Part shown: one piece after another, positions 41,057 through 59,020 of the stretch | Layout: each line of letters starts with the position of its first letter | Position numbering within the stretch: position 1 is the first letter of the stretch | Assembly (NCBI GenBank): GCA_015229005.1 | Contig: JADGCL010000002.1 | Location: forward strand, 22,668-86,667 | Source: Magnetococcales bacterium | Lineage (GTDB): Bacteria; Pseudomonadota; Magnetococcia; Magnetococcales; JADGCL01 | DNA: 64,000 bases | Direction of reading: 5' to 3' | Position numbers and translations under genes: made by a program | The notes under the pieces: generated by a model | What the model was told of the DNA's origin: nothing | The model's database searches: none | What the model saw: the letters and a program-made list of their open reading frames with translations, nothing else

Positions 41057-41617
41057 CTAGCGAATCACCGCATGCAGGCGGATCGCGAGTACCCGGGGGG
41101 ACATTTCCCCGAGCTGCTCCAGGAGCCCTTCCAGGACGGAAACCTTCTCGTCATCGCGAAAGAACTCCCGGACCTCCTCGCTGAAACGGTCGCTCCCGAC
41201 CTCCCGATTGGCGAGATCATCGGCCAGGAGATACCCCTCCGCCGTCAGGCTCGGCAGTCCCACGTCCCCGGTCACGACCCCTTCGCGCCGCTTCTCCTCG
41301 AAGAGGGGACCCCATTCGCGATAGTCGAAGCGGCCCCCCGGCTCCCCCCGCCCCCGCGGCCTGGCCCGCGTCATCGGCATCCGCGCCGCCACCTCCCGCA
41401 GCAGGGGCTCGCGACGCATCCAGCGGACCAGGAGACTCAGGCAGTCACGGGCAAAGAAATGCCCACTCCCCCGATTTCCCTGCCAGGAACGCAAGGCATA
41501 GAGCAGGATCGCCTGCGGCAGGCTTACCGGTCTCTCCCGAAAATCAAACGTAAACGTGTGCCGCCGCCCCCCTTCGCGGTATGTTGCCAGATCCTCCGGC
41601 GCAACCAGACTCCCCAT
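41057..41617 (-). CDS. Hypothetical protein downstream of the RADAR-like operon
   Basis: 186 aa, MGSLVAPEDLATYREGGRRHTFTFDFRERPVSLPQAILLYALRSW...; same strand, no family recognised. Confidence 0.6.
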   Translation of the reverse strand: MGSLVAPEDLATYREGGRRHTFTFDFRERPVSLPQAILLYALRSWQGNRGSGHFFARDCLSLLVRWMRREPLLREVAARMPMTRARPRGRGEPGGRFDYREWGPLFEEKRREGVVTGDVGLPSLTAEGYLLADDLANREVGSDRFSEEVREFFRDDEKVSVLEGLLEQLGEMSPRVLAIRLHAVIR

Positions 41618-41763
41618 CGTCACCTCTCCTCCCACTCTCCCATCGACACCCAGACCGGAGCTCTCCCGGAATCACCACGAAGGTGGTCTCGCGAAAATCA
41701 TGCCGGCCCGACCCCTTTTGTCAAACTCCCGATCGCATCGTGCAGCAGACAAACAACCAGGGA

Positions 41764-42270
41764 TCAGGGCCTGCGATGATGCTCCTCGTAGGCATCCAGA
41801 AAGCCGTCCAGGATCTCTCTGATCCGCTTCTCCAGGTCGGTGGAGGACGAACCCTTATTGAGATAAAAATGACAGCCTCGCTTTCCGATCTCGAAACCTT
41901 TATTGTTCACTTCAGAATTGGCCGTCAATATGCCAGCCTGGGTTATAGGCGACCTGTCGAGAACGTGATCGACCAGGAAAACCCCTTCCTCACCAACAGG
42001 GACCTCCGGGTAATGGGGGTCATTCTGGGCACGCGCCAAGCTGAGATCCTGGTCGATGATCGCGAGTGCCAAACACAAGTCCGGGGTTGCGATCGGTCCC
42101 TTCACGACCTCCTTGAACTTTTCGAGAACGGCAAGAGTGTCAACGATCCCCCGGGTACGAATGGGATCCACCCCGGTGATACTCTTCAGGGTCACCCGAA
42201 GGCTTTTGAAAGATTCATCGTCATCCTCGACGACCAGGACCTTCAGCCCCGCATAGGTACTCTTGGCCAT
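41764..42270 (-). CDS. Stand-alone response-regulator receiver protein, copy 2
   Basis: 168 aa; VLVVEDDDES (acidic pair), ALAIIDQDLSLA (phosphoacceptor Asp), AGILTAN (switch Thr), HFYLNK (Lys). No output domain. Confidence 0.82.
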   Translation of the reverse strand: MAKSTYAGLKVLVVEDDDESFKSLRVTLKSITGVDPIRTRGIVDTLAVLEKFKEVVKGPIATPDLCLALAIIDQDLSLARAQNDPHYPEVPVGEEGVFLVDHVLDRSPITQAGILTANSEVNNKGFEIGKRGCHFYLNKGSSSTDLEKRIREILDGFLDAYEEHHRRP

Positions 42271-42406: not shown

Positions 42407-42913
42407 TCAGACCGTATGATTATAATCTTTGAAGGCATCCAGAAAGCCGTCCAGGATCTCTTTGATCCGCTTCTCCAGGTCGGGGGATGACCAATTCTTG
42501 TCGAAATAAAAGTGGCCCCCGCCCCGTCCGGTTTCAAAGCCTTTATTGTCCGACCCATAATATGCCGTCAGAATCCCGACCTGGGTTACCGGCAATCTGG
42601 CGTTAACATGCGGAACCAGGAAAACCCCCTCTTCACCCACAGGGACATCCTGGTAATAGGGTTCATTCTGGGCACGCGCCAGGCTGAGATTCTGGTCGAT
42701 GATCGCGAGCGCCAAACACAAGTCCGGGGTTGGGATCGGCCCCCTCGCGACCGCCTTGAACTCATCGAGAATAGCGAGGGTATCAGCAATCCCCCGGGTA
42801 CGAATGGGCTCCACCCCGGTGATACCCTTCAGGGTCACCCGAAGGCCGTCGAAGGAATTGTCGTCATCCTCGACGACCAGGACCTTCAACCCCGCGTAGA
42901 TACTCTTGGCCAT
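42407..42913 (-). CDS. Stand-alone response-regulator receiver protein, copy 1
   Basis: 168 aa; MAKSIYAGLKVLVVEDDDNSFDGLRVTLKGITGVEPIRTRG...ALAIIDQNLSLARAQN...GILTAYY...HFYFDK; close paralogue of 41764..42270. Confidence 0.82.
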   Translation of the reverse strand: MAKSIYAGLKVLVVEDDDNSFDGLRVTLKGITGVEPIRTRGIADTLAILDEFKAVARGPIPTPDLCLALAIIDQNLSLARAQNEPYYQDVPVGEEGVFLVPHVNARLPVTQVGILTAYYGSDNKGFETGRGGGHFYFDKNWSSPDLEKRIKEILDGFLDAFKDYNHTV

Positions 42914-42961: not shown

Positions 42962-45157
42962 TCACCCGACCGGGAGTCGGATCTGGATGGTGCTCCCCTC
43001 TCCCGGTTCGCTTCGAACCACCGCCAACTCCCCCCCCATCGCCGTCACGAAGGCCTGTGCAGTCACCGCCCCGATGCCCCTCCCCTCCGGCTTGGAGGTG
43101 AAACCCACCCAACCAAAATCGGCCCGGGCCTGAGCGTCCATGCCGATCCCCCTGTCCACCACCTCCACAATGGCCCAGCGCTCCCCCAAGCGGCGTACCG
43201 AGACCCGGATCTCGTTCATTCGCCCGGACTGTGAAGCCTCAACGGCATTGTCAAGAAGAATCCTTAAAGACTGGAACAGGCTTAACCCGTCGAACTTGAA
43301 GTGGCAATCTTCTCCGGGATGAAACGAAACCGACCAGGAACGAGGGTCCGGTTCACGCCGGAACCTGGCCACCGCCTCTCCGACAAAAGCGGAGAGACTG
43401 GCCCGCTCGCCCACGCTGCGTGAGAGAAAGGTCTGGTAATCGCGGAAATTGGCGACCATCTCTTTTACGTGCCGGAGGCCTGTCCGCGCCGACTGGCAAA
43501 GCCTGACCACGTCCTCCCTTTGGTCAGAGTAGTCGATCCAGAGGGGCTCTCCGGCAAAGGCCCGATCCAGGAACCGGTGATTGACCAGGGTATCAACCGG
43601 CCTCAGGCCGTTGATGACCTCATGGGTCAGGCTGCGATGGGCATCGCCGAGGAGTTGGCTGTAACGCAACTTGTCGAAGGCGGTGGTGGCATCCCAGAGA
43701 TCGAGGACCGTATTGCCGGCACACCCCAGGGCAAGAAACAGGTAGGAGAGAAAGATCCACGGAAAATCCTTCGCCACCGGATAACTCTGCATCGCGAAAG
43801 GACCCAGGCACGCCAGGATCAGGGCACTGACGAAACACCCCCACACCACCTGGTTGAACCGGTGTTCCCTCTCCTCCCTGCCGAACTCCCGGGCATGGAA
43901 CCCTCGTCCCAGAAGCCGGTCTATCAGGAACGCGAGAAGCCGCGATCGACCAACTCCCCGACCAAACAAGCCCCATAACAGACCAAAAAGGAACACGGAC
44001 AGGAGGAGGACAATCAACGCCTGGACCCACGGCTCGAGCCTCAGGGCACCCAATCCCAGGAAGATTCCCTGAAAACCAAAAGGGGAGATAAACAGGAAGA
44101 CAAACCCCAGGAGTTGGTCTTGCCCGGTCAGGATGAATTCCCGGTCACAGTGGATGCGGACCCTCACCGCCAGGGCGGCGGCCAGGAGAAAAAAGAAGAG
44201 CGAGACGACCACGCCCCAGGCATGCAGCAACCCCGCATCACTCTCCAGATAATAGCCGGAAAACTCTCCCGCCAATGCCTTGGGATCCCAGCCCAGATCG
44301 AACCAGCCCAGATTGAACACGCCCAGATCGACAAGGGCCTGGCCCATCACCAGAAACGAGAAAATACACAAAATGACCCACGCGCCGGCGAGGAGAACGG
44401 ACGGCATCAGGGATTCCTCATTCGACCCCGGTCTGCCCGGAATCCTGGCGGTGAAAACAAACCACGGCACAAAGAGCCACTCCCGGAAGAAGTTCAGGTT
44501 GCCGAACCGACCATCGGTATCCCGAAACTCCCGCCACCACCCCTTCCCCCGGCCTGAGGTGAACCAGCCCGGATAGAAGAAGGAGAGGAGAAGCGCCGTG
44601 AAAGGGAAGGGAAACATCCCCAGAAAAAAGAGCCCGGCCCGATTGGAAAAATAGGCCGCCGCCACCTTCACCGCTGCCTTATCTGCCGCTGCCTCCGCCG
44701 AAGCCTTGGCCAGCACCACCTCCGCCGACGCCGCCACCTCCGCCGTCACCTCCGCCATCGCCGACGCCCCCGCAGCCGCCGCAGCCGCCGATTTCACCGC
44801 AACAACCTTGGCAGCCGCCGACTCCGCCACTTCCAATGCCAATTCTCCCTCACCCTGCAACAGACGACCGCCGGAGAGGCAGAGAATGCCGATCCCCAAC
44901 GAGAGGAGGGTGCCCGCAGCCGCCAGGTGGTACTCCTTGCGATGGCGACTGCCGACGCGGTTGACCAACTCGTAGAGAAACAACTGCTGCACCGAGAACG
45001 AGAGGCCGACCAGGGCCGTGCCGATCCCCAGGAAGGGCAAAGTCCGCCGGTCCCCGAAGAACCAGAGGGAGAAACCGAAGATCAGGAAAAAGCCCGCCAT
45101 GAAGAGAAGCTGCGCAGGGGCCAGCGCCACGCCCACTCTGTGATCAGACCCCATCAT
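42962..45157 (-). CDS. Polytopic membrane histidine kinase (HisKA-like plus HATPase_c), coupled to the rdrB-like gene
   Basis: About 9-10 hydrophobic segments; H-box-like SLTHEVINGLRPVDTL; N-box ILLDNAVEAS; G1 VDRGIGMD; G2 GRGIGAVTAQAFVTAMGG. Start codon overlaps the upstream stop (TGATG). Confidence 0.88.
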   Translation of the reverse strand: MMGSDHRVGVALAPAQLLFMAGFFLIFGFSLWFFGDRRTLPFLGIGTALVGLSFSVQQLFLYELVNRVGSRHRKEYHLAAAGTLLSLGIGILCLSGGRLLQGEGELALEVAESAAAKVVAVKSAAAAAAGASAMAEVTAEVAASAEVVLAKASAEAAADKAAVKVAAAYFSNRAGLFFLGMFPFPFTALLLSFFYPGWFTSGRGKGWWREFRDTDGRFGNLNFFREWLFVPWFVFTARIPGRPGSNEESLMPSVLLAGAWVILCIFSFLVMGQALVDLGVFNLGWFDLGWDPKALAGEFSGYYLESDAGLLHAWGVVVSLFFFLLAAALAVRVRIHCDREFILTGQDQLLGFVFLFISPFGFQGIFLGLGALRLEPWVQALIVLLLSVFLFGLLWGLFGRGVGRSRLLAFLIDRLLGRGFHAREFGREEREHRFNQVVWGCFVSALILACLGPFAMQSYPVAKDFPWIFLSYLFLALGCAGNTVLDLWDATTAFDKLRYSQLLGDAHRSLTHEVINGLRPVDTLVNHRFLDRAFAGEPLWIDYSDQREDVVRLCQSARTGLRHVKEMVANFRDYQTFLSRSVGERASLSAFVGEAVARFRREPDPRSWSVSFHPGEDCHFKFDGLSLFQSLRILLDNAVEASQSGRMNEIRVSVRRLGERWAIVEVVDRGIGMDAQARADFGWVGFTSKPEGRGIGAVTAQAFVTAMGGELAVVRSEPGEGSTIQIRLPVG

Positions 45158-48100
45158 CACCCCCAGCGCTGGTCGGCCCGGTAGGACTCCTCGGTCCAAT
45201 CGAAGAAGAGATTTCCCCGGCGGCGGATGCCGTCGAGCCACTCGCGGACGCGGGCCGGGGCGACCCCGTGATCGACGGTGGCCGCCTTTTCCAGGTGCCG
45301 ATACTCGGCCGCCAGGGTGGTATTGAAAATCCCGGGATCGTCGGTATTGACGCAGAGGTCCAGCGGACCGCCGCGGATCCCGAAACGATTGTACCGGGCC
45401 CCCGGGGCAAGGAGCGCCGCCTCGGGCGGCGACCAGCGAAAGATCGGGTGTTCGGCGTAGGAGCGGATCGGCGCGATCGCCAGGTTGGAGGAGGGGCAGA
45501 CCTCGACGGCCACCCCGGCCTTGGCCAGACGCGCCATCAGGTCATCCTGGATCACCTCCCAGGCCTCGGCCTCCAGGGGAGTGATTCTTTCGTAGGAGAA
45601 GTCGTTCTCTCCCCCATGTTCATCGTAGTGAAGCGAGAGGAGCCGATTGGCATAACCCTGATACCGCTCCCAACCTGCGGTCGGCGCCTCCTCGGCGGCG
45701 CACCCCCGCCCCGCAGTCGGGAGTGCGCCCTCCCACTGCCTCCCTGAGACCGGGCGACACTGCTCGTTCCGCAGCCGGTAGCGCTCCCGCCGGCGGGCAT
45801 TGACCAAAGAGAAAAAGTGCCGGTCCTCCCGTTTCATGATCCACTCGGTCTGCCCGGCCAACTCCGCAAACCGCCTGAGCGAGGCCTGACCGATGGGGTC
45901 CCAGTGCAAGGCCTCGTGCCCCCGGCGCAGACAACTCTGCATCGGCAGATCGCAGCGGTCCCAGCAGGGACGAAAGGCCTGGTGCAGGGCCTCCCGGGAG
46001 AAGGCCCGAAACCGCCAGAAGCGGTACCACAGCTCCGGGTGCCGGGCCTCGGCCTCCGGCCCGTGCAGCACCTTGGCCAGATCGCGAACCCGATATTCAT
46101 AGACCGGCAACAAGGCGGCCGCCCTGGGCCAGCGCGGCAGGATACGAACCAGCATCGCCCAGGCCCAGACCATGTTGTCGAAATACTCTTCGCGGGTCAC
46201 CAGGATGTTCGGATGGCGTTCGAGCCACAGCGTCGGGGCGAGCCCCAGGGCCAGGGCGTGACCGATCCGATCGCCCGGCCCCAACTCACAAAAGGTCAAC
46301 GCCTCATCGACCGCACGGATGCCGGTCAGGAGGCAGGAGAAATCCTCACCGGCATGGACATGCACCGGAAGGCGCCGCCGCCAGGCCGTCCGCCATTGGC
46401 GGCTGTGAAGCGGCGAGCGCTCCTCCGCCTGCCGGTGGGGACGCCGCAGATAGAGGATGCAGGGGGAGAAAAACTCGATCGGCAGATCCGGCTCCACCCC
46501 GGCGACATCGATCCCCGCAATCAACCGGGTCATATCCAACGGCCCGGCCTCGCATCGGCGCCGCCAGGACCGCCAGGCCCCCCCCGGCATCTCCCTCCCC
46601 CCGCCGAACATCGGCAGGAAGCGGGGCGGCAGACGCCGCGACTGCGGACTCGACAGAAAGGCATCCAGCTCCAGGGTCTGCCGTTGAATCTTCTCCCAGC
46701 GGCGCCCCCGTTCCAACCGCCGCTCCTCGAGGGCCTGGCGACACGGGTCCCCCGACGGCGGCAGCCAGTTCTCCAGGGTGCGAATGTAGTGCAGGGTGAA
46801 CTGGAACCCCCGGGAACAACCGCTCCCCTTGCCCAACCCCGTCGTCGCGTAGGCGACCGGCGGCTCTCCCGGAGGGATCGCCTCGCCACTCCCGTCCGCC
46901 TCCCGTGCCGCCCGATGCAGGATCTCCATCAATGACCCCAATCGTTCAACGTCGAGGAAGGTATCGAAACCGATCCGGGCATTGATCTTGTCCACCCCGG
47001 CGCGATACATCCCCCGCGCCCGGTCGAGGCCGTTGTTGCCGCGCAGAACCTCCTGGAGTTCCGCCTGATCCTCGGCGTTGCGCAGGGCACTGTCGTAAAA
47101 ATCGGAAAACCAGCGCAGCCCGGTGCCATGCCCCATCACCATGTAGGAACGCAGGATGCCGATCCCGTGAATAAAGAGGCGCACGAAGGGATGCGCCTCG
47201 GCCAACCGGCGCTCCATCATGGAGAGATGACACACCACCAGGGTGGTCAGGAGAAAGGCGGAAAACTCCCCCTCGCGGAACTGGGCCTCCGCCTCCCGCG
47301 AGAGCATCCGGAGGCGCTCCAGGATCTCCTCCGGGATCCGCCCCGAGCCCTCACCCCGCAGGCCACCCAGCTCCCGGACCCAGGGACAGGGCTGGCGGCT
47401 CCCCCCCCGCAGGACCAGCGCCACCTTGTACCGCCCCTCCCGGCACAACCCCGCACGATCCTGCCGCCAGGGCAGGAGCCGGAGAAAGCGGTAGGCGATC
47501 CGCACCAGGTCGATGACCTGGATGATCCGGAGCGTCCCGGCGTTGAGGCATTGAAATTCGGGGATGTTCGGCAATAGCCGCTGAAACCCGGGCGCACGCC
47601 ACTTCCCGGGCACCGAGGGGGCCCGGAGAATCGCCGCAAGCTGCGTCGCCGGCTGGATGGCGCCACCGAAATGGACGTGGTTGTCGGCCAGGGGGAGGTC
47701 GCTGTCGGCCTCGGCCAGGAAGGTCAACTCGTGGACCTTGCGGCAATACCCCACCACCTGCGGGAAGCTCAACCGATGCTGGTGAAGACGGTCGGCCAGC
47801 TCATGCCCCACCACCACGAAAGGGTGGAGATGGTCCAGGGAATCCCGGTTCGCCCGCGAGTGGGCCATCTGCCGCTCCACGGTGTTGCCCTGGAGGCGAT
47901 AGTGGCGGCCAAAGACCGCAGCAAGAAATTCATAGCCATAGTGAAAGGGAAAACCATCCAGCGGAGCCCAACCCACACGCTCGTCCCTCTCCAGCGCCCG
48001 TTGAAGGTCGTCCAGGCGATAGCTGTCCGAGGCGTAGTCACGCATCACCGCGAGCGCCAGCTCCCCGCCCGGATCGGCGCCATCCCGCCCCCGCCGCCTC

Positions 48101-48231
48101 CACTCCCGCTCGAACCGCTCCAGGTGGTACGGCTCCCGCGATGCCGCCACCTGCTCAGCCAGCGCCAGCAGCAACCGGTCCGAACGCACCAGCATGATCC
48201 CGGGAATGGCGCTCAGAAACTCCCCGCCCAT
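45157..48231 (-). CDS. rdrB: RdrB-like adenosine deaminase family protein (RADAR defence)
   Basis: 1024 aa with the adenosine deaminase superfamily motif series in order: DNHVHFGGAI (HxH), HVHAGEDF, DRIGHALALG, VEVCPSSNLAIAP, CVNTDDPGIFNTTLAAEY. Adjacent to a large P-loop ATPase. Confidence 0.85.
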   Translation of the reverse strand: MGGEFLSAIPGIMLVRSDRLLLALAEQVAASREPYHLERFEREWRRRGRDGADPGGELALAVMRDYASDSYRLDDLQRALERDERVGWAPLDGFPFHYGYEFLAAVFGRHYRLQGNTVERQMAHSRANRDSLDHLHPFVVVGHELADRLHQHRLSFPQVVGYCRKVHELTFLAEADSDLPLADNHVHFGGAIQPATQLAAILRAPSVPGKWRAPGFQRLLPNIPEFQCLNAGTLRIIQVIDLVRIAYRFLRLLPWRQDRAGLCREGRYKVALVLRGGSRQPCPWVRELGGLRGEGSGRIPEEILERLRMLSREAEAQFREGEFSAFLLTTLVVCHLSMMERRLAEAHPFVRLFIHGIGILRSYMVMGHGTGLRWFSDFYDSALRNAEDQAELQEVLRGNNGLDRARGMYRAGVDKINARIGFDTFLDVERLGSLMEILHRAAREADGSGEAIPPGEPPVAYATTGLGKGSGCSRGFQFTLHYIRTLENWLPPSGDPCRQALEERRLERGRRWEKIQRQTLELDAFLSSPQSRRLPPRFLPMFGGGREMPGGAWRSWRRRCEAGPLDMTRLIAGIDVAGVEPDLPIEFFSPCILYLRRPHRQAEERSPLHSRQWRTAWRRRLPVHVHAGEDFSCLLTGIRAVDEALTFCELGPGDRIGHALALGLAPTLWLERHPNILVTREEYFDNMVWAWAMLVRILPRWPRAAALLPVYEYRVRDLAKVLHGPEAEARHPELWYRFWRFRAFSREALHQAFRPCWDRCDLPMQSCLRRGHEALHWDPIGQASLRRFAELAGQTEWIMKREDRHFFSLVNARRRERYRLRNEQCRPVSGRQWEGALPTAGRGCAAEEAPTAGWERYQGYANRLLSLHYDEHGGENDFSYERITPLEAEAWEVIQDDLMARLAKAGVAVEVCPSSNLAIAPIRSYAEHPIFRWSPPEAALLAPGARYNRFGIRGGPLDLCVNTDDPGIFNTTLAAEYRHLEKAATVDHGVAPARVREWLDGIRRRGNLFFDWTEESYRADQRWG

Positions 48232-48240
48232 GACGAACCC

Positions 48241-51200
48241 CTACCCGACCGGCGGTGTGTAGGGCACTCTGAAAAGGCGGTGCAACTCATCGACCTGATC
48301 CCCATAACCGAGGCGCTTGAGTTCGGCGAACACCCTGGCGTAGGGAAGCTCGGGATCCTTGAGAATCCGCGTCAGAAGCCACAGCTCCGACGGCCCGAGG
48401 GTGCGGGACACCCGGGAAAATCTCTCGGAAACCTCCCCGACCCAACGCCGGAATGCCTCCACCCGGGCGTGAAGATCGGAGCCATACCGCTTCGAGGGTT
48501 CCCCCAACCACCCGAGGATGGTCTCCCGGGTGATCCGATTTTTCTCGACATGGATGAAAAAGAGGGGCTCCCCCGCCCCCTTCCCGGCGAGCAGGACCCG
48601 GACCAGGGGGTGACACCTCAGGGCATCGTACAAAGAGACGAGGCGATCCGTCCGCCGGCAGCCCCGACAATCCCCCGACGGCACCTCCCTGTCAAGCTCT
48701 GGACAATTGACCCGGACCGCCGCCGGTATCACCCTCGCCGGATCAGCACCCTCGTCTCTGCAGGACTTGTCGATATCCAGGGATGCCGCGTTCACCCAGC
48801 CCCGCTTTTCCACGATCGCCGCCGCATTGAGAAGACCCAGGACGTAGAACCGCAGATAGGTCACAATATCCACCGAGTGACCGCCTTCGGTCACCAGGAG
48901 ACGAACCTGGGCATCCAGATCCTTGATCTGAGAGGAAAAGACGCTCAGGAGATGGTAAACACGGACTGCCGTCCAGCGAAGCGCCAACCGCGCCAGCCGC
49001 TCCCGCCACTCCCGCAGGCCAACACTCCCGGAGAGCCGCCGGGCCAAATACTCTTCAAGACCTTCCGATCTGGAGCCCTGCTTCTCATCCTCCAGACCCC
49101 CGCAAGGGCCCTCTTTCACCCCGGCTTCGGATTCCCGCGAAACCGGCTCCCCGGCCTCCACCTTCGCTCCCCCGGAACCCCCTCCCCCCTGGGAAGACCC
49201 GGTCCAGGGCGATTCCCGGTCGAACAGGCGGAGGGCATCGACCATTCCCGAGTCGTTCCGGGGCTGAAAAAGGGAGAAGAGCAGGGCGAAGAGGCGATCC
49301 AGGGAAATCACCGCCGGTTCCGGAGGCCTGGTGGAAGAGCCGCAGCTTCCCACCAGTTCCGCCCAAAACCACTCCGATGGCAAAAGCGATCCCTTCCCTT
49401 CCATCTCTTTCCACCGTTCCGAGTCCAACACCAGAGAGATGGGATCCCGGTTGCGGCGGCGCTCGCCGCCGGCATCCGGAATCAGAAACGGCAGGCGATC
49501 ACCGAGATCAGGATCCTCCTCCAGCACCCACCGGATCATGGCCCAGGGATCGAAGGCCTCCCCCATGGCCTCGACCTGCCTCTCCAGGGAAAGAACCCCC
49601 CAAAGATCGAGTCCCTCCTGTTCTTTCTGACGATAAGCTGCCGACGAGGCCTCCCCGGCCTTCAACACGACGGCCCGCATCCGCGACCACAGGCCCTCTC
49701 CATGGACCACCACAGCGGAACCGTTCTGCCGGACCGACAGAGAAGAGGCGATCCCCGCCGCGAGGAGATCCTGCCACCACCAGGAGGCCTCCGACCGGCA
49801 GGCAAGCGGCTGCCAGGCAACAGGCGATGTGAACATTCTCCGGACCCATTGCTCCTCCTTCTCTTCCCCCCGCATTTGCCTATCGCCGGAAAGCCCCTTA
49901 TACCACCCCGCCAGTGCCGGTTCCGCCGGGAGTTTCTCCTTCCGAGTTATCACATCCCGTCCCACTCGCTTCAGCAAGCTGTCTATGCCGGCCAACAGGT
50001 CAAAGACCTCCCCCTCAATCGCGTGGAGCGCCTGGATCAGATTGCGCAGCGAACCGTCAAACAGCGACTGGGATGGAGAGCCGGCGTCGGCCAATCCCAC
50101 ACCGAAGTGGATCACCGCCCGCTCCAGGGCGAAATAGTTCTCCATATGGATGGCATACGTCTGCCGTTTATCCCCCGTACCCCGCGCGAATTTCAGGATC
50201 CACTCCTTCCAGCCCCCCGCCGGGTGACGATGGCGACCGATATAGATACGGTTATGGAGCGGAAACACCTTGGAAAAATAGCCCTCCACAAACTGACTTA
50301 CATGCCGTTTGAGAGAACCCTCCGGATCCTTCACCGGCGAGAGGGACTCCACCCCGGTCAGGTGCGGAGGAAAGAGGTGGCTTCCCGGGGAAATACCCAG
50401 ATTCTTCGTCTGGAAATCGTGCCACTTGTTGTCCTTGAAATTGTCGATCTGACCGGAGACCACCGGCAGGAGGCGGGGAGAGTTCAGGTAGCGGCGAATG
50501 ATATCAAGGAGATGGTGGGCATGGTCGGGGGCCATATCGAGGTCATCGATGGGCAACACCAGGAGATCATTCCCGGTCGCCCGGGCAACGGCGTCAAAGA
50601 GATTATGCAACGCCTGCTCCAGGCGGTGACTGTCCTGGCTGTAGCCGATGGTGTCGATCCCCTTGGTCTCACCGGACTTCTGGATGCTGTACCAGATCTG
50701 ACCGACATCCTCCATGGCCTTGTCGATCCGGCCCTCCGCCTCCTCTTCCCGATCCGCCCACTGCTTCCCACCCGAATGCGCCCCGCACCGGCCCCCGCCA
50801 CCGGCATGAGGCCCGCCACGACCGGCCCCCCTCCTCAGGGCGAGTTGGCCACCTTCATAAACATGGGCAACCATCGAGGGAATCAGATAGGAACTCCTCT
50901 CGATCTCGATCAGGGTGGGATCGAACGGTCGCAGAAACAACACCTTCCGGAACGACTCCGATTCGCTCTCGCGGGAGCAGCCCCCCTCGCTCCGGTTCTG
51001 TTTTTTCAGATACGACTCGAGATTCATCAGGAGATGCGTCTTCCCCATCCCCCGCCCGCCATCCAGAAAGATGGTGTTCGACGAACGGCAATCGTGGATA
51101 TCGTCCAACTCTTCCGGACGCCTTTCGTGCAGAAAACACAACGCCTGGCGGATGATCCTTCCGATCTGCTCGTAGAGATCGGGATAGAGGATATGGCCCT

Positions 51201-51390
51201 CTTCCCTGACCACATTGACCAGGCTCTCCGAGACCCACAACTCCCGTATCCCAGCCGATTCCGCCGCTCCTGCCCCGTCGCCTGCCCCCACGCCGTCCTC
51301 CTCTCTCCACCCTGCCAAACCACCTTCCACGTCCGGAAGAGCGCCACACCCGGCCTCGCTCCCGAACCGCCGCCGGCGAGTGTATACCAC
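48241..51390 (-). CDS. rdrA: RdrA-like P-loop ATPase (RADAR defence); start codon uncertain
   Basis: ~1049 aa. Walker A FLDGGRGMGKTHLLMNLESYL, Walker B LLVLPIDDLDMAPDHAHHLLDIIRRYL; RdrA-RdrB gene order, 9-nt spacing to the deaminase gene. Confidence 0.82.
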   Translation of the reverse strand: MVYTRRRRFGSEAGCGALPDVEGGLAGWREEDGVGAGDGAGAAESAGIRELWVSESLVNVVREEGHILYPDLYEQIGRIIRQALCFLHERRPEELDDIHDCRSSNTIFLDGGRGMGKTHLLMNLESYLKKQNRSEGGCSRESESESFRKVLFLRPFDPTLIEIERSSYLIPSMVAHVYEGGQLALRRGAGRGGPHAGGGGRCGAHSGGKQWADREEEAEGRIDKAMEDVGQIWYSIQKSGETKGIDTIGYSQDSHRLEQALHNLFDAVARATGNDLLVLPIDDLDMAPDHAHHLLDIIRRYLNSPRLLPVVSGQIDNFKDNKWHDFQTKNLGISPGSHLFPPHLTGVESLSPVKDPEGSLKRHVSQFVEGYFSKVFPLHNRIYIGRHRHPAGGWKEWILKFARGTGDKRQTYAIHMENYFALERAVIHFGVGLADAGSPSQSLFDGSLRNLIQALHAIEGEVFDLLAGIDSLLKRVGRDVITRKEKLPAEPALAGWYKGLSGDRQMRGEEKEEQWVRRMFTSPVAWQPLACRSEASWWWQDLLAAGIASSLSVRQNGSAVVVHGEGLWSRMRAVVLKAGEASSAAYRQKEQEGLDLWGVLSLERQVEAMGEAFDPWAMIRWVLEEDPDLGDRLPFLIPDAGGERRRNRDPISLVLDSERWKEMEGKGSLLPSEWFWAELVGSCGSSTRPPEPAVISLDRLFALLFSLFQPRNDSGMVDALRLFDRESPWTGSSQGGGGSGGAKVEAGEPVSRESEAGVKEGPCGGLEDEKQGSRSEGLEEYLARRLSGSVGLREWRERLARLALRWTAVRVYHLLSVFSSQIKDLDAQVRLLVTEGGHSVDIVTYLRFYVLGLLNAAAIVEKRGWVNAASLDIDKSCRDEGADPARVIPAAVRVNCPELDREVPSGDCRGCRRTDRLVSLYDALRCHPLVRVLLAGKGAGEPLFFIHVEKNRITRETILGWLGEPSKRYGSDLHARVEAFRRWVGEVSERFSRVSRTLGPSELWLLTRILKDPELPYARVFAELKRLGYGDQVDELHRLFRVPYTPPVG

Positions 51391-51691: not shown

Positions 51692-54600
51692 TCACGGCGT
51701 CAGGGTGATGCTCCCCGAACCGATCGTCACACTCGAAACCAACCCCGGGAAATAATAGTCCACGAACTGCGTGGTCGGGATGCTCTGGCTGGCCGTGCTG
51801 TCGAAGGCCAAATCCCCGTCCCCGGCGCGGTTCAGGGTGTTCTGCTGAGCCTCCCGCGCCCGTGCCAGGGAAGGATCACCCAGGGAACTCTCCAGGACGT
51901 GCAGCGGCGGGTTGGCCCCGCCCCCGGTGAAGAAGGTCAGTGACCCCCCGCTGCTCAGACCCGAGAGGACACTGTTATAGTTGGAGATCAACGAGTTCAA
52001 GCTCATCGTCACATCGGGCAGAATGTTGAGGTAGAGGATATCGACGGTCGAATTGGCCGTATCCACACTCACCTGATTGCCGGAAAGAACCGGGACCAGA
52101 TTGACACAGACGTCGGTGGTGAAGTTTGCCGCATAGGGCGCCAGGGTATCGAAGAGGGTCTGCCAACCGCTCTGCACCGTCGCCGGCAAACGGTCGTAGA
52201 TGGAGCCGATCACCCCGACCCGGCCCGTCACCGTGATCTGTGACGGCGCCACGCTCACCCGAAGCTTCTTGACCACCCCCGTCACGTCGTAGGCGAAGGT
52301 CCCCCCCGACGTGAGCTGCCGGTCCAACTTGGCCAACAACAGGTAATAGAGATTCGCCTCGGTCAAGGTCACCGGCGTGCCACTGCTGAGCGACGCCATG
52401 GCCGCAGTGTAGATCCCCTTCGCCGTCGAGGCGATGGTCCCGGACGATTCGGTCACCGTGGTCACGCTGTCGGCGCTGCAACTCTTGCCGGTGACCGCCA
52501 GGGTGAAGTTGGTGGCGGTCGTGATCCCGCAAGTCGAATCGGTGGCAGTGATCGTGATCGAATAGTTGCCCGTGGTGGTGAAACGGCTGGCATCGGCCAC
52601 CACCAACTGCTGGTTGCCGGTGCCGCCAATGGCCAAACCACCGGTGCCATCCGTTGTCAGAACGTAGGTAAAGGTGGCGTTGGCCGCCGAAGGATTGACC
52701 GAGGTGATGCCCGCAACCACCGTCCCGGTCGGGCTGCCGGTGTAGAACGAGGTGGCATTCAGGGTGGTCGTCAGGGTCGGATTGACGATCGTCAAGGTGA
52801 TGGTCTTGCTCAAAGGCAGAGAGTCCTGGATCCCGGTCGAAACCACCGTAACGCTCTTGGTGGTGCCAGCCGTCAAGGCCCCGATAACCGTCAGATTGGA
52901 ACCCGACAGGGCAAACAGACCACCCGCCGAATCGGTCAGGGTATAGGTGTGGGTGTTGCCGACATCGGGGTCAACCGTCGTCAAGGCCCCGACTACCGTC
53001 CCGTTGACGCTGCAGGCGTAAGCCTCAGTCGCATTCAGGGTGATGTCGGAAGGGGCATCGGCCACCGCCGTGACGGCAATGGTGGCATTGACCGTACTCC
53101 CCCCGAGACCACTGCCGGCATTGCTCGTGGAGGCCTGCACCGTGAAACGGAAGGTCGTGCCGTCCGCCGTGTTCAAATTCGCCGAAGGCGTAAACTTAAG
53201 CCCCGCATTCCCCTCGGCAAAGGTGACGAAAGTCCCGTCGGTGATCTGCGTCGTGCCGTTGTTCTTGTAAAGTCGACCACCCAGAATCCCGGTGATCTTG
53301 AAGTGCGTCACCTCCGCAGAGTCGTCGACGTTGCGGCTGATCACCAGACCGCTCGTCGATTGGGTGTCCTCGTTGGTCGACGCACTCGTCACCGACGGCG
53401 TGTCGGCAACCGCCGTGACCGTGATCGAAGCCCTCGCAACCCCCCCCCCCAGACCCGCAGCACCGGCACTGAGCGAGGCCTGAATCCCGAAACCAAAAGA
53501 ATCCCCCTTGCCCGAGTTCAGGTTGGCCGATGGCAGGAACTTCAACCCCGAGGTCCCCTCGGTATAGGTGATGAACTCATTGTCGCCGATGGCCGTGGTC
53601 CCGTCGTTCTTGTAGAGCGTCCCCCCGGTGATGCCCGAAATCTTGAAATGGGTGACCTCCGCACCGTCAACAAGATTGCGGCTGATGACCAGACCCGAGG
53701 TCGATTTGGTGTCTTCGTTCGTCGTCGTCGCCGTCACCGTCGGGGTATCGGCGACGCTGTTCACGGTGATCGCCGCCGTCACCGTACTGCTCCCCACCGC
53801 CGCCGCCGAGGTCACCCCAGCCACAGTGAAACCGAAATTGTTGCCCCCATCACTGTTCAGGTCGGCGGCCGGAGTGAACTTCAGCCCGGCATTACCCTCG
53901 GCAAAAGAGATCAGATCATTACTGCTGATCTGGGTGACGCCATCATTCTTGTAAAGTGTCCCATTGGTGATACCCGAGATCTTGAACTGGGTCACCTCAT
54001 TGCCGTCAGCGCTGTTGCGGGTCAGGACAAGCCCCGTCGTGGTCTGGGTATCCTCGCTGGTCGTCGCCGCCGAGACCGACGGCTGATCCGCAACCGGGTT
54101 CACCGTCAGAACGAAACTGCTCGTCGCCGTGGAGGCAGGATCGGCACTCTCGGCGACAATCACCGAAAGGGTCGTACTCCCGAACTGATTGGTCGCCGGC
54201 GTAGCGCTCAGGGAGCGCGTCGCCGCAGTCCCCGAGAGAACGAGATTGGCATCGGGAACCAGGGTCGTATTCGATGAGACCGCCGTCACCGTCAGCTCGG
54301 CGACCGGCGACTCCACGTCCGCCACCGTGAACGTGACCCCACTCTTCGCCGTGTCCTCCTCCGTCGTCTGGGCAGCGATGGCCGTCACCGTCGGCGGGTC
54401 GTTGACCGCGACCACCGTCACCGCCGCCGTCCGCGTCGATCCACCCAGGCCGCTGCTGTTGCTCGAGGTCGAGGCCTGAATCGTGAACCCGAACGCAGAG
54501 GTGGTGGTCGAGTTCAGGTTGATCGACGGCAGAAAACGCAGTCCGCTCGCCCCTTCCGCATAGGTGATGAAAGTACTGTCAGTCAACTGCGTCACCCCAT

Positions 54601-57600
54601 CGTTCTTGAACAGGGTACCATTGGTGATGCCGGTGATCTGGAAGTGCGTCACTTCGCTGCCATCCACGGCATTGCGGCTGATGACCAAGCCCGAACCCGA
54701 CAGGGTATCCTCGTTCGTCGACGCTGCGGTGACAGAGGGAGTATCGGCCTTGCCGGAGACGGTCAGGGTAAAATTCCTGCTCGCGGAGGTATCGGCACCA
54801 CCACTGGCGGTGCCGCCATTGTCGGTCAGCACCACCTTCATGACCGCAGTGCCGAAAGCATCCGCCGCCGGGGTATAGGTCAGGGTACCGTTGCCATCGA
54901 TGGCCGGCGCCACCGTGAAGGTCAGGGTCGAATCGGCGCTGTCGGTGGTCACCGTGAAAAAGGTGGTCTGGGCCGACTCGTTGCCATGACCAGGGGATTT
55001 GCCGGTGGCGAAATTGGCGACCGACCGGGCGCCGCTGTCCTCGGCCACGGTGTCGCCCGAGGACAGGGTGAAGGTCGGCGCGTCGTTCACCGCCGCAACC
55101 GTGATCGTCGCCGAAGTACTCGTCGGACTCACCGCAGCATCGACCGCCGCCGTCGCGCCGGCGAGTGTCACCGAAAAACTGTCCCCGGCCTCGGAGTTCA
55201 GGTTGGCGTCAGGGGTGAATCTCAGCCCCGCATTGCCCTCGGCATAGGTAATGAAGCTGTTGACGGCAATGGCGGTGGTCCCGTCACTCTTGTAGAGCGT
55301 CCCGTTGGTCACGCCGGTGACCTTGAAGTGGGTCACCTCCGAACCATCCCTGCCGTTGCGACCGACAACCAACCCCGATGTGGACTGGGTATCCTCCCGG
55401 GTCGAGGCCCCAGTGACCACCGGCGCATCCGCCTTGGCAGTCACGGTGATCGTGAAACTCTTCGTCTCCGAAATATCGACACCGCCATTGGACGTCCCGC
55501 CATTGTCCGCCAAAACCACGCTCACCGTCGCCGAACCGTAGGCGTCCGCCGCCGGGGTGTAGGTCAACGTCCCGGAAGAGTCGATGGCAGGGGGATTCGT
55601 GAAGGAGAGGGTCGAGGTCGCCGTGGGCGTCAGGGTGAAACTCAGAGACTGCCCCGATTCATCGGCTGGACCCCGGGAGATCCCGGTGGCAAAGGCCGAA
55701 ACCGTCCGCGTCCCCGAGTCCTCGCCAACACTGTCCGTCGTGAGGAGAGTGAAGCCAGGGGCATCGTTGACCGCCGTGACCGTAATACTCGCGGTGGTCA
55801 CCTCGGCGCTGACATTGCTCGTCGAGGCCGAAGCCGCCCCGGCGGCAGTAAAGGAAAAGCTGTCGCCGGCGGCGGTGTTCTTGTCCGCCGTGGGCGTGAA
55901 GCGCAACCCCGCAGCACCCTCGGTCAGGGTGATGAAATCACCGTTGACGAGGCGTGTCACTCCGTCGCTCTTGTATAGCGTCCCGGTGGTGATCCCGTTG
56001 ATCCGGAAATGCGTCACCTCCGCCCCGTCCACGGCGCTGGGCGTCACCACCAGACCGCTGCTCGACTGCGTATCCTCCCGCGTCGTGGTCGAGGTGATCC
56101 TCGGGGCATCCGGGACCGGAGAGACCGTCAATACGAAGGTATCCTTGGCCGTCGAGGTGGCATCCGCCGGATCGGCGACGGTGAGGGTGATGGTCGCCGT
56201 CCCACTCATGTTGGCAGCAGGAACCACGGTCAGGGTACGGTTGGGTCCGCTGCCCCCGAGGAGCAGATTGGCCTGCGGCACCAGGGCGGCGTCCGAGGAC
56301 GACGCCGTGACCAGCAGCAGATCCGCCGAGGTCTCCTGGTCACCGACCGAGAAATTCAGAACCCCGGTGGTCCCATCCTCGGCAATGGTCAGATCGGAGA
56401 CCTCGCTCACGAGCGGCGGATCGTTGAGATTCCTCACCGTGATCGCCACATTCCGACTCACCCCAAGGGCGCTCCCCTTGCCGGAACTCCCCTCATCCGA
56501 AACCGCAACGCCAAGAAGATCGGGACCACTGTAGTTGGCGGCGGCCTGGTAGGTCAGGCTCGCCAGCGCCGTGTTGAGATCGGCAGGCTGACCGGTGACC
56601 GTGAAACTCCCGGTGCCGTTGCTCCCCGAGGAAAAAACGACCCCCGAAGTACTCTGCAACGTCAGGGTCCCTCGGGTCACCCCCAGGGTCACCTTGAAGG
56701 CGCCCGTCACCGCATCCACATCCGCAACGCTGATCTGGCTCGAACCGCTGAAGCTCAGCAAGGTATCCTCGTCGACGCTCACGGAAGCCGGACTGGTGAC
56801 GGTCGGGGCCTCATTGACGTTGTTCAACAATACCGTCACGACCGCCGTAACCGACTTGGTCTCTTTCTTGGCATCGGCCTTCCCATCGGTGACAGCGACA
56901 TTCAAGGTAAAAGAGGTCCTGGCCTCGAAGTCGAGGGCGGCGCTGTCCAATACCGTCAACACCCCCTTGCCGTCGACGGCAAACACCGTCGACGACTCCA
57001 CCAGGGAGAAGGCCAGGGTGTCCTTGTCCTTGTCGGTCGCCACCACCTTGCCGACGACCGTCCCCACCGCGCTGTTCTCATCCAGAACGATGGTCTGGTC
57101 GCTCATCTCCGGCACACGGTTGGACGGTGTCGGAACGAAGGGGGTATTGTTGTCGTCGGTGGAAGAGGAAGAGGTGCCGGGGGTGGTGCCGGAGGTCGAC
57201 TCCGCCGCCCCGGTGGTCGACCCGTAGAGCGAATCCTCCGTCCCGGTTCCGGTCGTGGCGGCAGGCTCCGTCGCCGGGGTGGTCCCGGTCCCCGTCTGGC
57301 CGGCCTCGGGCTCGGTGGCGACCGCGCCCGCATCACCGACCGCCGCGGCATCGGGCTCGCTCTTCACCTCCCCGGTCCCACCGGCGGCCCCGGGTTCACC
57401 CTGCGCCTCTCCCGTCCCCCCACCGGGGGGGGTACCCCCGGCATTGCCCTCACCCACACCGGCGCCCTGGTTCCCGGTCACCCCGGTAATACCGCTGGCA
57501 CTGTCGGCGCTGGCGCCGGGGGCCACCGGGGCATTCCCCTCCGGACCCCGACCCCCTTCAGGAACGCCCACAGCCCCCGCTTCACTCCCAACCCCCGCCG

Positions 57601-59020
57601 CCGGCGCCCGGGCTTCCTGCACCGCCTCCTTGGCCGCCTGCCTGGCGGCTGCCAGATCAACCCCCATGGCCACCGCTTCGCTCTCTTTGGCCTTGACCAC
57701 CGCCTCCGCCTTCTCCTGGAGGGCCTGCTCGAGGGGCTTGCCCGTCTTCACCGCCTGCGCCAACTCCTCGGTGAACCGACCGACCTCCTCCTGGACACTC
57801 TCCAGACTGCGACTGACCAGGGTCTCATCGACCGCCGACTCCGCAATGGCGGTGAGACTCTGCGCAGGTTGCTCGTCGAGGATGGCCTTCTCCTGTTCGA
57901 GGGCCTTCTTCCGGCTCTTCTCCTCATCCGTCAGCTCCGCACCGGAACTCTCCTTCTCGGCCAGGGCCTGGATCTTCTCCTCGACGGCCTCCCGCTGCTG
58001 CTCGACCTCGGCCTGCTTCTCGATCGCCTCGGCAGTACTCTCGACGAGCTGCTGCTCCGCCTTCTCGACGATGCTCTCCAACGCCTCGGGACTCTTCTGC
58101 AATTTCTCCGCAGCTTCCTGCACCGGGATGCCCAGCTTCGTCGCCATCGCCTGCGCCGCCTGACGGACCAGCGCCTCCTTCGCCTTCTCGGGGAGCTTCT
58201 TCACCAGGGTCGATTTATGGGCCTTGGCCAGGTCGGAGGGAGTCGCCTTGACGACCGAGGTCACCCCCACCTTGGCATTACCGGTCAGTTTCTGGTTCTT
58301 CGTCACGCTCTGCGGCGGTTTCGAGGTATCGGCGGCCGCTGCGGCGGGCGACACAAGGGGAATCCGATCCAGGAAACCGACGGTCCCGGGGACCCCCGAC
58401 TCCCGCCGGGACTCGTCCATCCACACCAGGATTTCCTTCTCCAGGGTGATGACCTCGATGTTGTCGTTGCCCGAGGCTTGATCGGCACCGGTCCCCGAAA
58501 GGCGCAGGAAACCTTCGGTTCCGCGCACCCCGAGAGTGGCCACAGGCGTGGAGATCTTGAACGGATGCTGCTTCAGCTTGCCAAGCTTGCCGGTGGTAAA
58601 ACGGATCAGACCGCGGGTCAGCTCGAGGATACCGTTGCCGCTCTCCGCCTCGGCCTGGAACTGGTATTGGGCAACGACAAACTCGCTGTCTTCGCCGAGG
58701 GCGATGACGGCATCATCCTTCATCTTGAGAATGAGGCGGGCATTGCGACCGGTGACGATCCGATCCTCCTGGAAGACAGGATCGCCCTCGGAGAGGGTGC
58801 GTTTGGTCTGCCCGAACTGGGAGTAGGCCAATCCCTTGGACTGGGTGATCTCCCCCACCACCTGCCGCCGTGGTTTGTCGGCACGGGGAAGGGTCGTCTC
58901 CACACCGACCCCGCGCTTCCCCCCCTGGTCGGGACCCATCAGGAGATAGCCGCCGCCGGCAACAACCACCATCAGCAGCAGAACCGCCCAAACCCATCTA
59001 TTAAGGAAGAGCTTGCCCAT
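51692..59020 (-). CDS. 2442-aa FecR-domain, coiled-coil, cadherin-like and CSPG-like repeat protein
   Basis: N-terminal TM; FecR-like RFTTGKLGKLKQHPFKISTPVATLGVRGTEGFL; long Glu/Lys/Gln coiled coil; cadherin-like DQTIVLDENSAVGTVVGKVVATDKDKDTLAFSL; six CSPG-like repeats VTHF[K/R]I.GIT.GTLYK.DG....F[I/V]T..EG.AGL[R/K]F.P. Confidence 0.9.
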   Translation of the reverse strand: MGKLFLNRWVWAVLLLMVVVAGGGYLLMGPDQGGKRGVGVETTLPRADKPRRQVVGEITQSKGLAYSQFGQTKRTLSEGDPVFQEDRIVTGRNARLILKMKDDAVIALGEDSEFVVAQYQFQAEAESGNGILELTRGLIRFTTGKLGKLKQHPFKISTPVATLGVRGTEGFLRLSGTGADQASGNDNIEVITLEKEILVWMDESRRESGVPGTVGFLDRIPLVSPAAAAADTSKPPQSVTKNQKLTGNAKVGVTSVVKATPSDLAKAHKSTLVKKLPEKAKEALVRQAAQAMATKLGIPVQEAAEKLQKSPEALESIVEKAEQQLVESTAEAIEKQAEVEQQREAVEEKIQALAEKESSGAELTDEEKSRKKALEQEKAILDEQPAQSLTAIAESAVDETLVSRSLESVQEEVGRFTEELAQAVKTGKPLEQALQEKAEAVVKAKESEAVAMGVDLAAARQAAKEAVQEARAPAAGVGSEAGAVGVPEGGRGPEGNAPVAPGASADSASGITGVTGNQGAGVGEGNAGGTPPGGGTGEAQGEPGAAGGTGEVKSEPDAAAVGDAGAVATEPEAGQTGTGTTPATEPAATTGTGTEDSLYGSTTGAAESTSGTTPGTSSSSTDDNNTPFVPTPSNRVPEMSDQTIVLDENSAVGTVVGKVVATDKDKDTLAFSLVESSTVFAVDGKGVLTVLDSAALDFEARTSFTLNVAVTDGKADAKKETKSVTAVVTVLLNNVNEAPTVTSPASVSVDEDTLLSFSGSSQISVADVDAVTGAFKVTLGVTRGTLTLQSTSGVVFSSGSNGTGSFTVTGQPADLNTALASLTYQAAANYSGPDLLGVAVSDEGSSGKGSALGVSRNVAITVRNLNDPPLVSEVSDLTIAEDGTTGVLNFSVGDQETSADLLLVTASSSDAALVPQANLLLGGSGPNRTLTVVPAANMSGTATITLTVADPADATSTAKDTFVLTVSPVPDAPRITSTTTREDTQSSSGLVVTPSAVDGAEVTHFRINGITTGTLYKSDGVTRLVNGDFITLTEGAAGLRFTPTADKNTAAGDSFSFTAAGAASASTSNVSAEVTTASITVTAVNDAPGFTLLTTDSVGEDSGTRTVSAFATGISRGPADESGQSLSFTLTPTATSTLSFTNPPAIDSSGTLTYTPAADAYGSATVSVVLADNGGTSNGGVDISETKSFTITVTAKADAPVVTGASTREDTQSTSGLVVGRNGRDGSEVTHFKVTGVTNGTLYKSDGTTAIAVNSFITYAEGNAGLRFTPDANLNSEAGDSFSVTLAGATAAVDAAVSPTSTSATITVAAVNDAPTFTLSSGDTVAEDSGARSVANFATGKSPGHGNESAQTTFFTVTTDSADSTLTFTVAPAIDGNGTLTYTPAADAFGTAVMKVVLTDNGGTASGGADTSASRNFTLTVSGKADTPSVTAASTNEDTLSGSGLVISRNAVDGSEVTHFQITGITNGTLFKNDGVTQLTDSTFITYAEGASGLRFLPSINLNSTTTSAFGFTIQASTSSNSSGLGGSTRTAAVTVVAVNDPPTVTAIAAQTTEEDTAKSGVTFTVADVESPVAELTVTAVSSNTTLVPDANLVLSGTAATRSLSATPATNQFGSTTLSVIVAESADPASTATSSFVLTVNPVADQPSVSAATTSEDTQTTTGLVLTRNSADGNEVTQFKISGITNGTLYKNDGVTQISSNDLISFAEGNAGLKFTPAADLNSDGGNNFGFTVAGVTSAAAVGSSTVTAAITVNSVADTPTVTATTTNEDTKSTSGLVISRNLVDGAEVTHFKISGITGGTLYKNDGTTAIGDNEFITYTEGTSGLKFLPSANLNSGKGDSFGFGIQASLSAGAAGLGGGVARASITVTAVADTPSVTSASTNEDTQSTSGLVISRNVDDSAEVTHFKITGILGGRLYKNNGTTQITDGTFVTFAEGNAGLKFTPSANLNTADGTTFRFTVQASTSNAGSGLGGSTVNATIAVTAVADAPSDITLNATEAYACSVNGTVVGALTTVDPDVGNTHTYTLTDSAGGLFALSGSNLTVIGALTAGTTKSVTVVSTGIQDSLPLSKTITLTIVNPTLTTTLNATSFYTGSPTGTVVAGITSVNPSAANATFTYVLTTDGTGGLAIGGTGNQQLVVADASRFTTTGNYSITITATDSTCGITTATNFTLAVTGKSCSADSVTTVTESSGTIASTAKGIYTAAMASLSSGTPVTLTEANLYYLLLAKLDRQLTSGGTFAYDVTGVVKKLRVSVAPSQITVTGRVGVIGSIYDRLPATVQSGWQTLFDTLAPYAANFTTDVCVNLVPVLSGNQVSVDTANSTVDILYLNILPDVTMSLNSLISNYNSVLSGLSSGGSLTFFTGGGANPPLHVLESSLGDPSLARAREAQQNTLNRAGDGDLAFDSTASQSIPTTQFVDYYFPGLVSSVTIGSGSITLTP
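53130..56030 (-). repeat. Six CSPG-like repeats in the giant repeat protein
   Basis: VTHFRINGITTGTLYKSDG, VTHFKVTGVTNGTLYKSDG, VTHFQITGITNGTLFKNDG, VTQFKISGITNGTLYKNDG, VTHFKISGITGGTLYKNDG, VTHFKITGILGGRLYKNNG. Confidence 0.85.

What the first reader, a model, noticed from the sequence alone, without database searches (positions are those of the whole stretch)
42962..45159. Histidine kinase translationally coupled to the RdrB-like deaminase
The deaminase stop and kinase start share one base (TGATG, 45159-45155), implying coupled translation and roughly fixed stoichiometry. The kinase keeps an H-box-like THEVINGLRP, N-box, G1 and G2. It has many predicted TM segments but no recognised extracellular sensor domain, so the stimulus may be intramembrane (for example envelope or membrane perturbation during infection; inference).
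Basis: partly seen in the sequence, partly recalled or inferred. Interest (0 to 1): 0.7.

Follow-up and report, generated by a model that had tools for sequence, protein, structure and literature searches.

The report
Two-component signalling module inside RADAR operon
In two distantly related magnetotactic bacteria the genes of the RADAR anti-phage system, which turns ATP into ITP, sit in one operon with their own membrane sensor kinase and receiver protein, suggesting that a dedicated signalling pathway tells this otherwise sensor-less immune machine when to fire.

Summary
Confirmed: a 731-aa polytopic histidine kinase (42962-45157, minus strand) directly follows the RdrB-like deaminase; stop and start overlap as TGATG (45159-45155), and H, N, G1 and G2 motifs are present. 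Two output-less receivers follow (REC1 42407-42913, REC2 41764-42270), with all phosphorylation residues intact. The order RdrA-RdrB-HK-REC recurs in a second Magnetococcales genome of another family, at 25-31% protein identity. The two kinases are mutual best hits across 61 genomes; the REC subfamily occurs in 2 of 399 sampled phylum genomes, both times in this operon. So the kinase is very probably dedicated to RADAR. Published RADAR subtypes are rdrAB, rdrABC (Csx27) and rdrABCD (SLATT); a kinase/receiver type was not found in the literature held, and only one of 80 RdrB loci surveyed (that second locus) has it. Best explanation: the kinase reads a membrane event, phosphorylates the RECs, and phospho-REC gates RdrA/RdrB post-translationally, in the manner of Detocs but with a different ATP-destroying effector. 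Stimulus, sign and REC target are inferred. New variant of a known kind.

The parts
48241..51390 (-). RdrA-like AAA+ ATPase, 1049 aa (Walker A GRGMGKTH at about residues 111-118; Walker B-type LPIDDLD)
   Evidence: NF041743 RdrA E=9e-41, PADLOC RdrA E=1e-31; motif scan; start codon (GTG) uncertain
45157..48231 (-). RdrB-like adenosine deaminase, 1024 aa, active-site residues intact
   Evidence: NF041744 E=2e-112, PADLOC RdrB E=1e-69; profile matches solved RdrB 8fnv/8fnw E=2e-90; alignment
45155..45159 (-). TGATG stop/start overlap between RdrB and the kinase
   Evidence: not conserved in the second locus
42962..45157 (-). Polytopic sensor histidine kinase, 731 aa
   Evidence: HATPase_c E=3e-16; reciprocal best hit with the kinase of the second RADAR operon
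43688..45115 (-). Membrane part of the kinase, about 9-10 TM helices (residues 15-490)
   Evidence: hydropathy; no family match; AlphaFold2 model uninformative (pLDDT 37)
44648..44857 (-). Ala-rich low-complexity helix between TM3 and TM4 (residues 101-170), absent from the second kinase
43622..43624 (-). Phospho-acceptor His512 codon (H-E-V-I-N motif: kinase Glu and phosphatase Asn present)
42968..43300 (-). ATP-binding (CA) domain with N, G1, G2 boxes
   Evidence: Pfam HATPase_c
42407..42913 (-). REC1, stand-alone receiver, 168 aa (D16-18, D73, T116, K139), strong SD, no output domain
   Evidence: profile matches response regulators in the PDB, E=4e-7; REC order of helices and strands in the model
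41764..42270 (-). REC2, second receiver, 168 aa, 73% identical to REC1, all phosphorylation residues kept (dN/dS about 0.39)
41057..41617 (-). Last gene of the run, about 186 aa, unknown (start at ATG 41617 preferred; GTG at 41635 possible); membership uncertain
   Evidence: weak sub-threshold EACC1 match E=0.05; not homologous to the gene in the same place of the second locus

Best explanation
This is a RADAR anti-phage operon with its own two-component input. SHOWN by sequence: an RdrA-like ATPase, an RdrB-like deaminase with a complete active site, a polytopic histidine kinase and two catalytically complete stand-alone receivers lie in one operon; the set RdrA-RdrB-HK-REC is kept in a second, strongly diverged locus. 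INFERRED: the kinase's membrane part senses a change that accompanies infection or membrane damage. It autophosphorylates at His512 and passes the phosphoryl group to REC1/REC2 (Asp73). Because neither REC has a DNA-binding or enzymatic output, phospho-REC acts by binding, most likely to RdrA or the RdrA/RdrB assembly, and switches ATP-to-ITP conversion on, or releases an inhibition. The second REC may share the output role or act as a phosphate sink that sets a threshold, as DtcB does in Detocs. RdrB would consume the ATP that the kinase needs, so firing would alter its own input signal (prediction).
For: Second locus L026 (G034; Magnetococcales bacterium YD0425bin7, L042) has RdrA-RdrB-HK-REC in the same order. 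Kinase cores are reciprocal best hits among 61 genomes, each with dozens of kinase candidates (E=7e-14 and 5e-13). The REC subfamily is found in 2/48 order genomes and 2/399 phylum genomes, always in this operon. Similar divergence of RdrA (25%), RdrB (26-43% by segment), HK core (30%) and REC (30%) suggests long co-inheritance. H-E-x-x-N, N, G1, G2 and the REC D/D/T/K residues are kept in both loci. RECs have no output domain. REC1/REC2 are under purifying selection. RdrA stimulates RdrB in vitro, RdrB overexpression is toxic, and the phage trigger is unknown (PMC9994260), so an upstream switch is plausible. Precedent: Detocs, a defensive two-component system that destroys ATP (PMC11249213; PMC11728103). 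In G034 the operon is a low-G+C island (0.40-0.56 against 0.59-0.65 in most of the flanks), consistent with transfer as a unit.
Against: Only two loci are known, both from draft, multi-contig assemblies (G034 a metagenome-assembled genome). TM halves are not detectably homologous. No REC domain is fused to RdrA or RdrB, so the physical link is unproven. The RdrB tree does not show the two as sisters (one clade not rejected, p-AU 0.096). Other RADAR systems work without a kinase. The AlphaFold2 model of the kinase is uninformative.
Confidence: 0.57

Rival explanations
1. The kinase and receivers control expression or housekeeping: the RECs hand the phosphoryl group on (a relay through an unlinked phosphotransferase and DNA-binding regulator), so RADAR is induced transcriptionally rather than gated directly.
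For: Stand-alone RECs of the Spo0F/DivK kind often serve in relays (general knowledge). The RECs have no output domain.
Against: No phosphotransfer or DNA-binding gene was seen in the operon. The REC subfamily is confined to this operon, which suits a local target better than a genome-wide relay.
Confidence: 0.2
2. The kinase is mainly a membrane anchor or pore-like accessory in the slot that small multi-TM proteins (Csx27, SLATT) occupy in other RADAR operons; its catalysis matters little.
For: 12 of 80 RdrB loci have a small multi-TM protein next to RdrA/RdrB, one of them Csx27-like. The related Sulfurimonas locus L037 has a 205-aa, 4-TM protein overlapping the RdrB end. Literature subtypes carry Csx27 or SLATT proteins (PMC7699616).
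Against: All catalytic boxes and receiver residues are conserved at about 30% identity, and a receiver accompanies the kinase in both loci; an anchor would not need these. TM parts show no similarity to those accessory proteins.
Confidence: 0.15
3. Bystander: an ordinary two-component pair that happens to lie beside RADAR in a defence or mobile region.
For: Kinases are abundant in these genomes. In L036 a dCache kinase and a receiver protein lie upstream of RdrA with a gap, and look unrelated.
Against: Same order in two diverged loci, reciprocal best kinases, operon-specific REC subfamily, and overlapping or near-overlapping reading frames.
Confidence: 0.08

Closest known systems
RADAR (RdrA/RdrB; subtypes rdrAB, rdrABC with Csx27, rdrABCD with SLATT)
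   Same: RdrA-like AAA+ ATPase followed by RdrB-like deaminase with the intact zinc/catalytic residues; membrane-protein partner in the operon, as in some subtypes
   Different: The partner is a histidine kinase with one or two receivers; RdrA and RdrB are divergent (far below the NCBIfam cut-offs of 600 and 800 bits); such a subtype is not described in the papers held
Detocs (defensive two-component system: DtcA kinase, DtcB phosphate buffer, DtcC response regulator with effector)
   Same: Kinase plus receivers control an effector that destroys ATP; an extra receiver without an effector could be a buffer like DtcB
   Different: Receivers are not fused to the effector; the effector is the RdrA/RdrB complex (deamination), not a nucleosidase; no homology to Detocs proteins was tested
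Polytopic sensor kinases without periplasmic domain (DesK, AgrC, RegB kinds; comparison from general knowledge)
   Same: Many TM helices, mostly short loops, cytoplasmic kinase core
   Different: No family match for the TM part; the two TM parts are not detectably related to each other
Stand-alone CheY/Spo0F/DivK-like receivers
   Same: Single REC domain with complete phosphorylation site, no output domain
   Different: Longer (168 aa) with extra residues before beta3 and in the beta3-alpha3 loop; no Pfam match; subfamily seen only beside RADAR in the genomes sampled

Membership tests
RADAR | RdrA-type ATPase with Walker A/B | tested here: met
   NF041743 E=9e-41, PADLOC RdrA E=1e-31, Walker A GRGMGKT; match covers the N-terminal part and is below the curated cut-off
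RADAR | RdrB-type deaminase with His tetrad and catalytic Glu | tested here: met
   NF041744 E=2e-112 (below the 800-bit cut-off); H185, H187, H626, E629, H658 conserved; in a starred RdrB clade with other RADAR loci
RADAR | rdrA and rdrB adjacent in one operon | tested here: met
   9-nt gap in the window, 8-nt overlap in L026
RADAR | ATP-to-ITP activity and phage protection | not testable with these tools
   needs biochemistry and plaque assays
Two-component system (HK + REC) | HK with H-box, N, G1, G2 boxes | tested here: met
   (HisKA itself does not reach the Pfam threshold; H-box seen by motif and by alignment to the second kinase)
Two-component system (HK + REC) | REC with acidic pair, phospho-Asp, Thr/Ser, Lys | tested here: met
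   no Pfam hit, model of low confidence but with the REC order of elements
Two-component system (HK + REC) | Phosphotransfer HK to REC | not testable with these tools
   needs an in vitro assay
Detocs | Response regulator fused to a toxic effector domain (DtcC) | tested here: not met
   neither REC has an extra domain
Detocs | Homology to DtcA/DtcB | not tested
   no Detocs sequence or model at hand; PADLOC gave no hit to HK or REC, which is not decisive
Csx27/SLATT-associated RADAR | Csx27 or SLATT membrane protein in the operon | tested here: not met
   no PADLOC or Pfam Csx27/SLATT match to any downstream gene

The most novel reading that the evidence does not exclude
A RADAR subtype in which infection is sensed at the membrane by a dedicated kinase, and phosphorylated stand-alone receivers directly gate the RdrA/RdrB supramolecular deaminase. 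Because the deaminase consumes the kinase's own substrate ATP, the circuit would be self-limiting or self-latching, depending on the sign. It would be the second, structurally unrelated, case of two-component control of an ATP-destroying defence effector after Detocs.
Probability: 0.42. Interest if true: 0.8.

Novelty: new variant of a known kind. Interest (0 to 1): 0.62.

Why it matters
What triggers RADAR is an open question: RdrA is suspected to sense an unknown phage signal (PMC9994260). A RADAR operon with a hard-wired kinase and receivers has a genetically separable input: point mutants at His512 and Asp73 would show whether the complex can be switched post-translationally and where the switch binds. 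It would also show the two-component module being joined twice, independently, to effectors that destroy the ATP pool (Detocs and this).

Tried and rejected
Kinase as a chance neighbour: rejected because the order recurs in L026. L036 (Rhodocyclaceae) as a third case: rejected; its kinase has a dCache sensor and HisKA, a receiver protein and a gap separate it from RdrA, and it looks like an ordinary pair. L068 kinase 1.2 kb downstream: followed by a separate regulator, not adjacent. Last gene (41057-41617) as a conserved fifth member: not supported; the gene in the same place of L026 is not homologous (hhalign E=0.13, near the shuffled range), and no relative was found in 60 genomes. Homology of the kinase TM part to the small TM accessory proteins of related RADAR loci: none found. 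REC relatives in plasmids and viral contigs: none. RdrB relatives in viral contigs: five, none with a kinase in the stretch held. AlphaFold2 of the kinase from a two-sequence alignment: pLDDT 37, not used for fold search. REC model pLDDT 51: best Foldseek hit is a receiver domain (E=3e-4), used only as support.
Full report
OBSERVATION. On the minus strand the genes run RdrA-like (51390-48241), RdrB-like (48231-45157), kinase (45157-42962), REC1 (42913-42407), REC2 (42270-41764) and an unknown small gene (about 41617-41057). The sequence at the RdrB-kinase junction is GTGATGATG: the TGA stop (45159-45157) shares its A with the first ATG. The kinase has THEVINGLRP with His512, ILLDNAVEA, VVDRGIGMD and EGRGIG, and Pfam HATPase_c at E=3e-16. 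Hydropathy shows about 9-10 TM helices and an Ala-rich low-complexity stretch at residues 101-170.

THE NEIGHBOURS. RdrB is a diverged but complete RADAR deaminase: NF041744 E=2e-112, profile match to the solved RdrB 8fnv/8fnw at E=2e-90, and H185/H187/H626/E629/H658 in the places of E. coli H152/H154/H498/E501/H530 (the one-to-one assignment is inferred from motif order). RdrA matches NF041743 at E=9e-41 and has Walker A. The two RECs give no Pfam or NCBIfam hit, yet the profile of the three known members matches response regulators in the PDB (best E=4e-7). The predicted elements follow the (beta-alpha)5 receiver order with D16-18, D73, T116 and K139 at the expected strand ends, and the best fold match is a receiver domain (low-confidence model). 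They have no output domain. REC1 and REC2 are 73% identical at the protein level, dN/dS about 0.39, so the duplicate is kept by selection.

A SECOND LOCUS. A search of 61 genomes found seven with an RdrB relative; five of these are other Magnetococcales without a kinase of this kind next to it in the loci examined, several of which are cut by contig ends. One, G034 (PDZU01000041.1, Magnetococcales bacterium YD0425bin7), has RdrA (12083-9450), RdrB (9457-6761), kinase (6653-4920), REC (4923-4414) and another small gene. Its kinase is the best match to the window kinase in all relatives (E=7e-14), and the window kinase is its best match in return (E=5e-13), although each genome holds dozens of kinase candidates. 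The REC subfamily was found in 2 of 48 Magnetococcales genomes and 2 of 399 sampled phylum genomes, always in this operon, and not in eight genomes with the nearest other RADAR loci. RdrA, RdrB, kinase core and REC are all diverged to a similar degree (about 25-31%). In G034 the operon has 40-56% G+C in a surrounding of mostly 59-65%, which points to horizontal acquisition as a unit.

WHAT IS NOT CONSERVED. In G034 the RdrB-kinase junction has a 107-nt gap, while RdrA-RdrB overlap by 8 nt and kinase-REC by 4 nt; in the window these are a 9-nt and a 48-nt gap. The TGATG is therefore ordinary operon packing and not a conserved device, and fixed stoichiometry does not follow. The TM halves of the two kinases show no detectable similarity (hhalign), nor do the small genes at the 3' end (same call), so the latter may not belong to the system.

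HOW COMMON. Of the 80 best RdrB loci from a scan of about 85,000 species genomes, only the G034 locus has a kinase directly beside RdrA/RdrB (80 of 277 relatives were returned). Twelve have a small multi-TM neighbour, one of them Csx27-like. In the RdrB tree the window and G034 lie in one well-supported clade of ten (100/100), but are not shown to be sisters; one clade is not rejected (p-AU 0.096). The Sulfurimonas member of that clade (L037) has a 4-TM protein in the place of the kinase.

MECHANISM. Known from the literature: RADAR converts ATP and dATP to ITP and dITP during infection, RdrA enhances RdrB, RdrB overexpression is toxic, and the phage signal is unknown (PMC9994260). Known subtypes are rdrAB, rdrABC with Csx27 and rdrABCD with SLATT (PMC7699616; PMC11676413). 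Detocs shows that a kinase, a buffer receiver and a regulator-effector can form an ATP-destroying defence. Put together, the most likely reading is that the kinase supplies the missing input to RADAR and that phospho-REC acts on the RdrA/RdrB complex. Steps shown: gene content, intact motifs, conserved order, REC specificity. Steps inferred: stimulus, phosphotransfer, REC target, sign. A consequence worth testing is that RdrB removes the ATP the kinase needs, so the circuit feeds back on itself. Membership: it is a RADAR by gene content and active sites (activity untested); it is not a Detocs, because the receiver-effector fusion is absent.

LITERATURE LIMITS. No held paper joins RADAR with a histidine kinase, but most subscription papers and all preprints are outside the library, so novelty is stated with that reserve.

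Noticed in passing
L138:5900-7254 (G373), L082:3465-4868, L101:6762-8246, L085:2372-4081: A Ham1-like (ITP/XTP pyrophosphatase family) plus SIR2-like module lies next to RADAR genes in four loci, as two overlapping genes in L138 and as single proteins matching both domains in the other three. An ITPase beside an ITP-making deaminase suggests a reset or antidote, or a second effector; it deserves its own study.
   Followed up: partly
window 44648-44857: Ala-rich, GCG/GCT-rich low-complexity stretch coding for a predicted long helix between TM3 and TM4 of the kinase; absent from the second kinase.
   Followed up: no
window 51692-59020 (minus strand): 2442-aa protein with a FecR domain and cadherin/bacterial Ig repeats, directly upstream of the RADAR operon on the same strand.
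   Followed up: no
window 41057-41635 (minus strand): Orphan gene of about 190 aa after REC2 with a sub-threshold EACC1 match (E=0.05); no relatives in 60 genomes.
   Followed up: partly
L028-L033 and L026: Magnetococcales carry several unrelated RADAR lineages scattered over the RdrB tree, pointing to repeated horizontal acquisition.
   Followed up: partly
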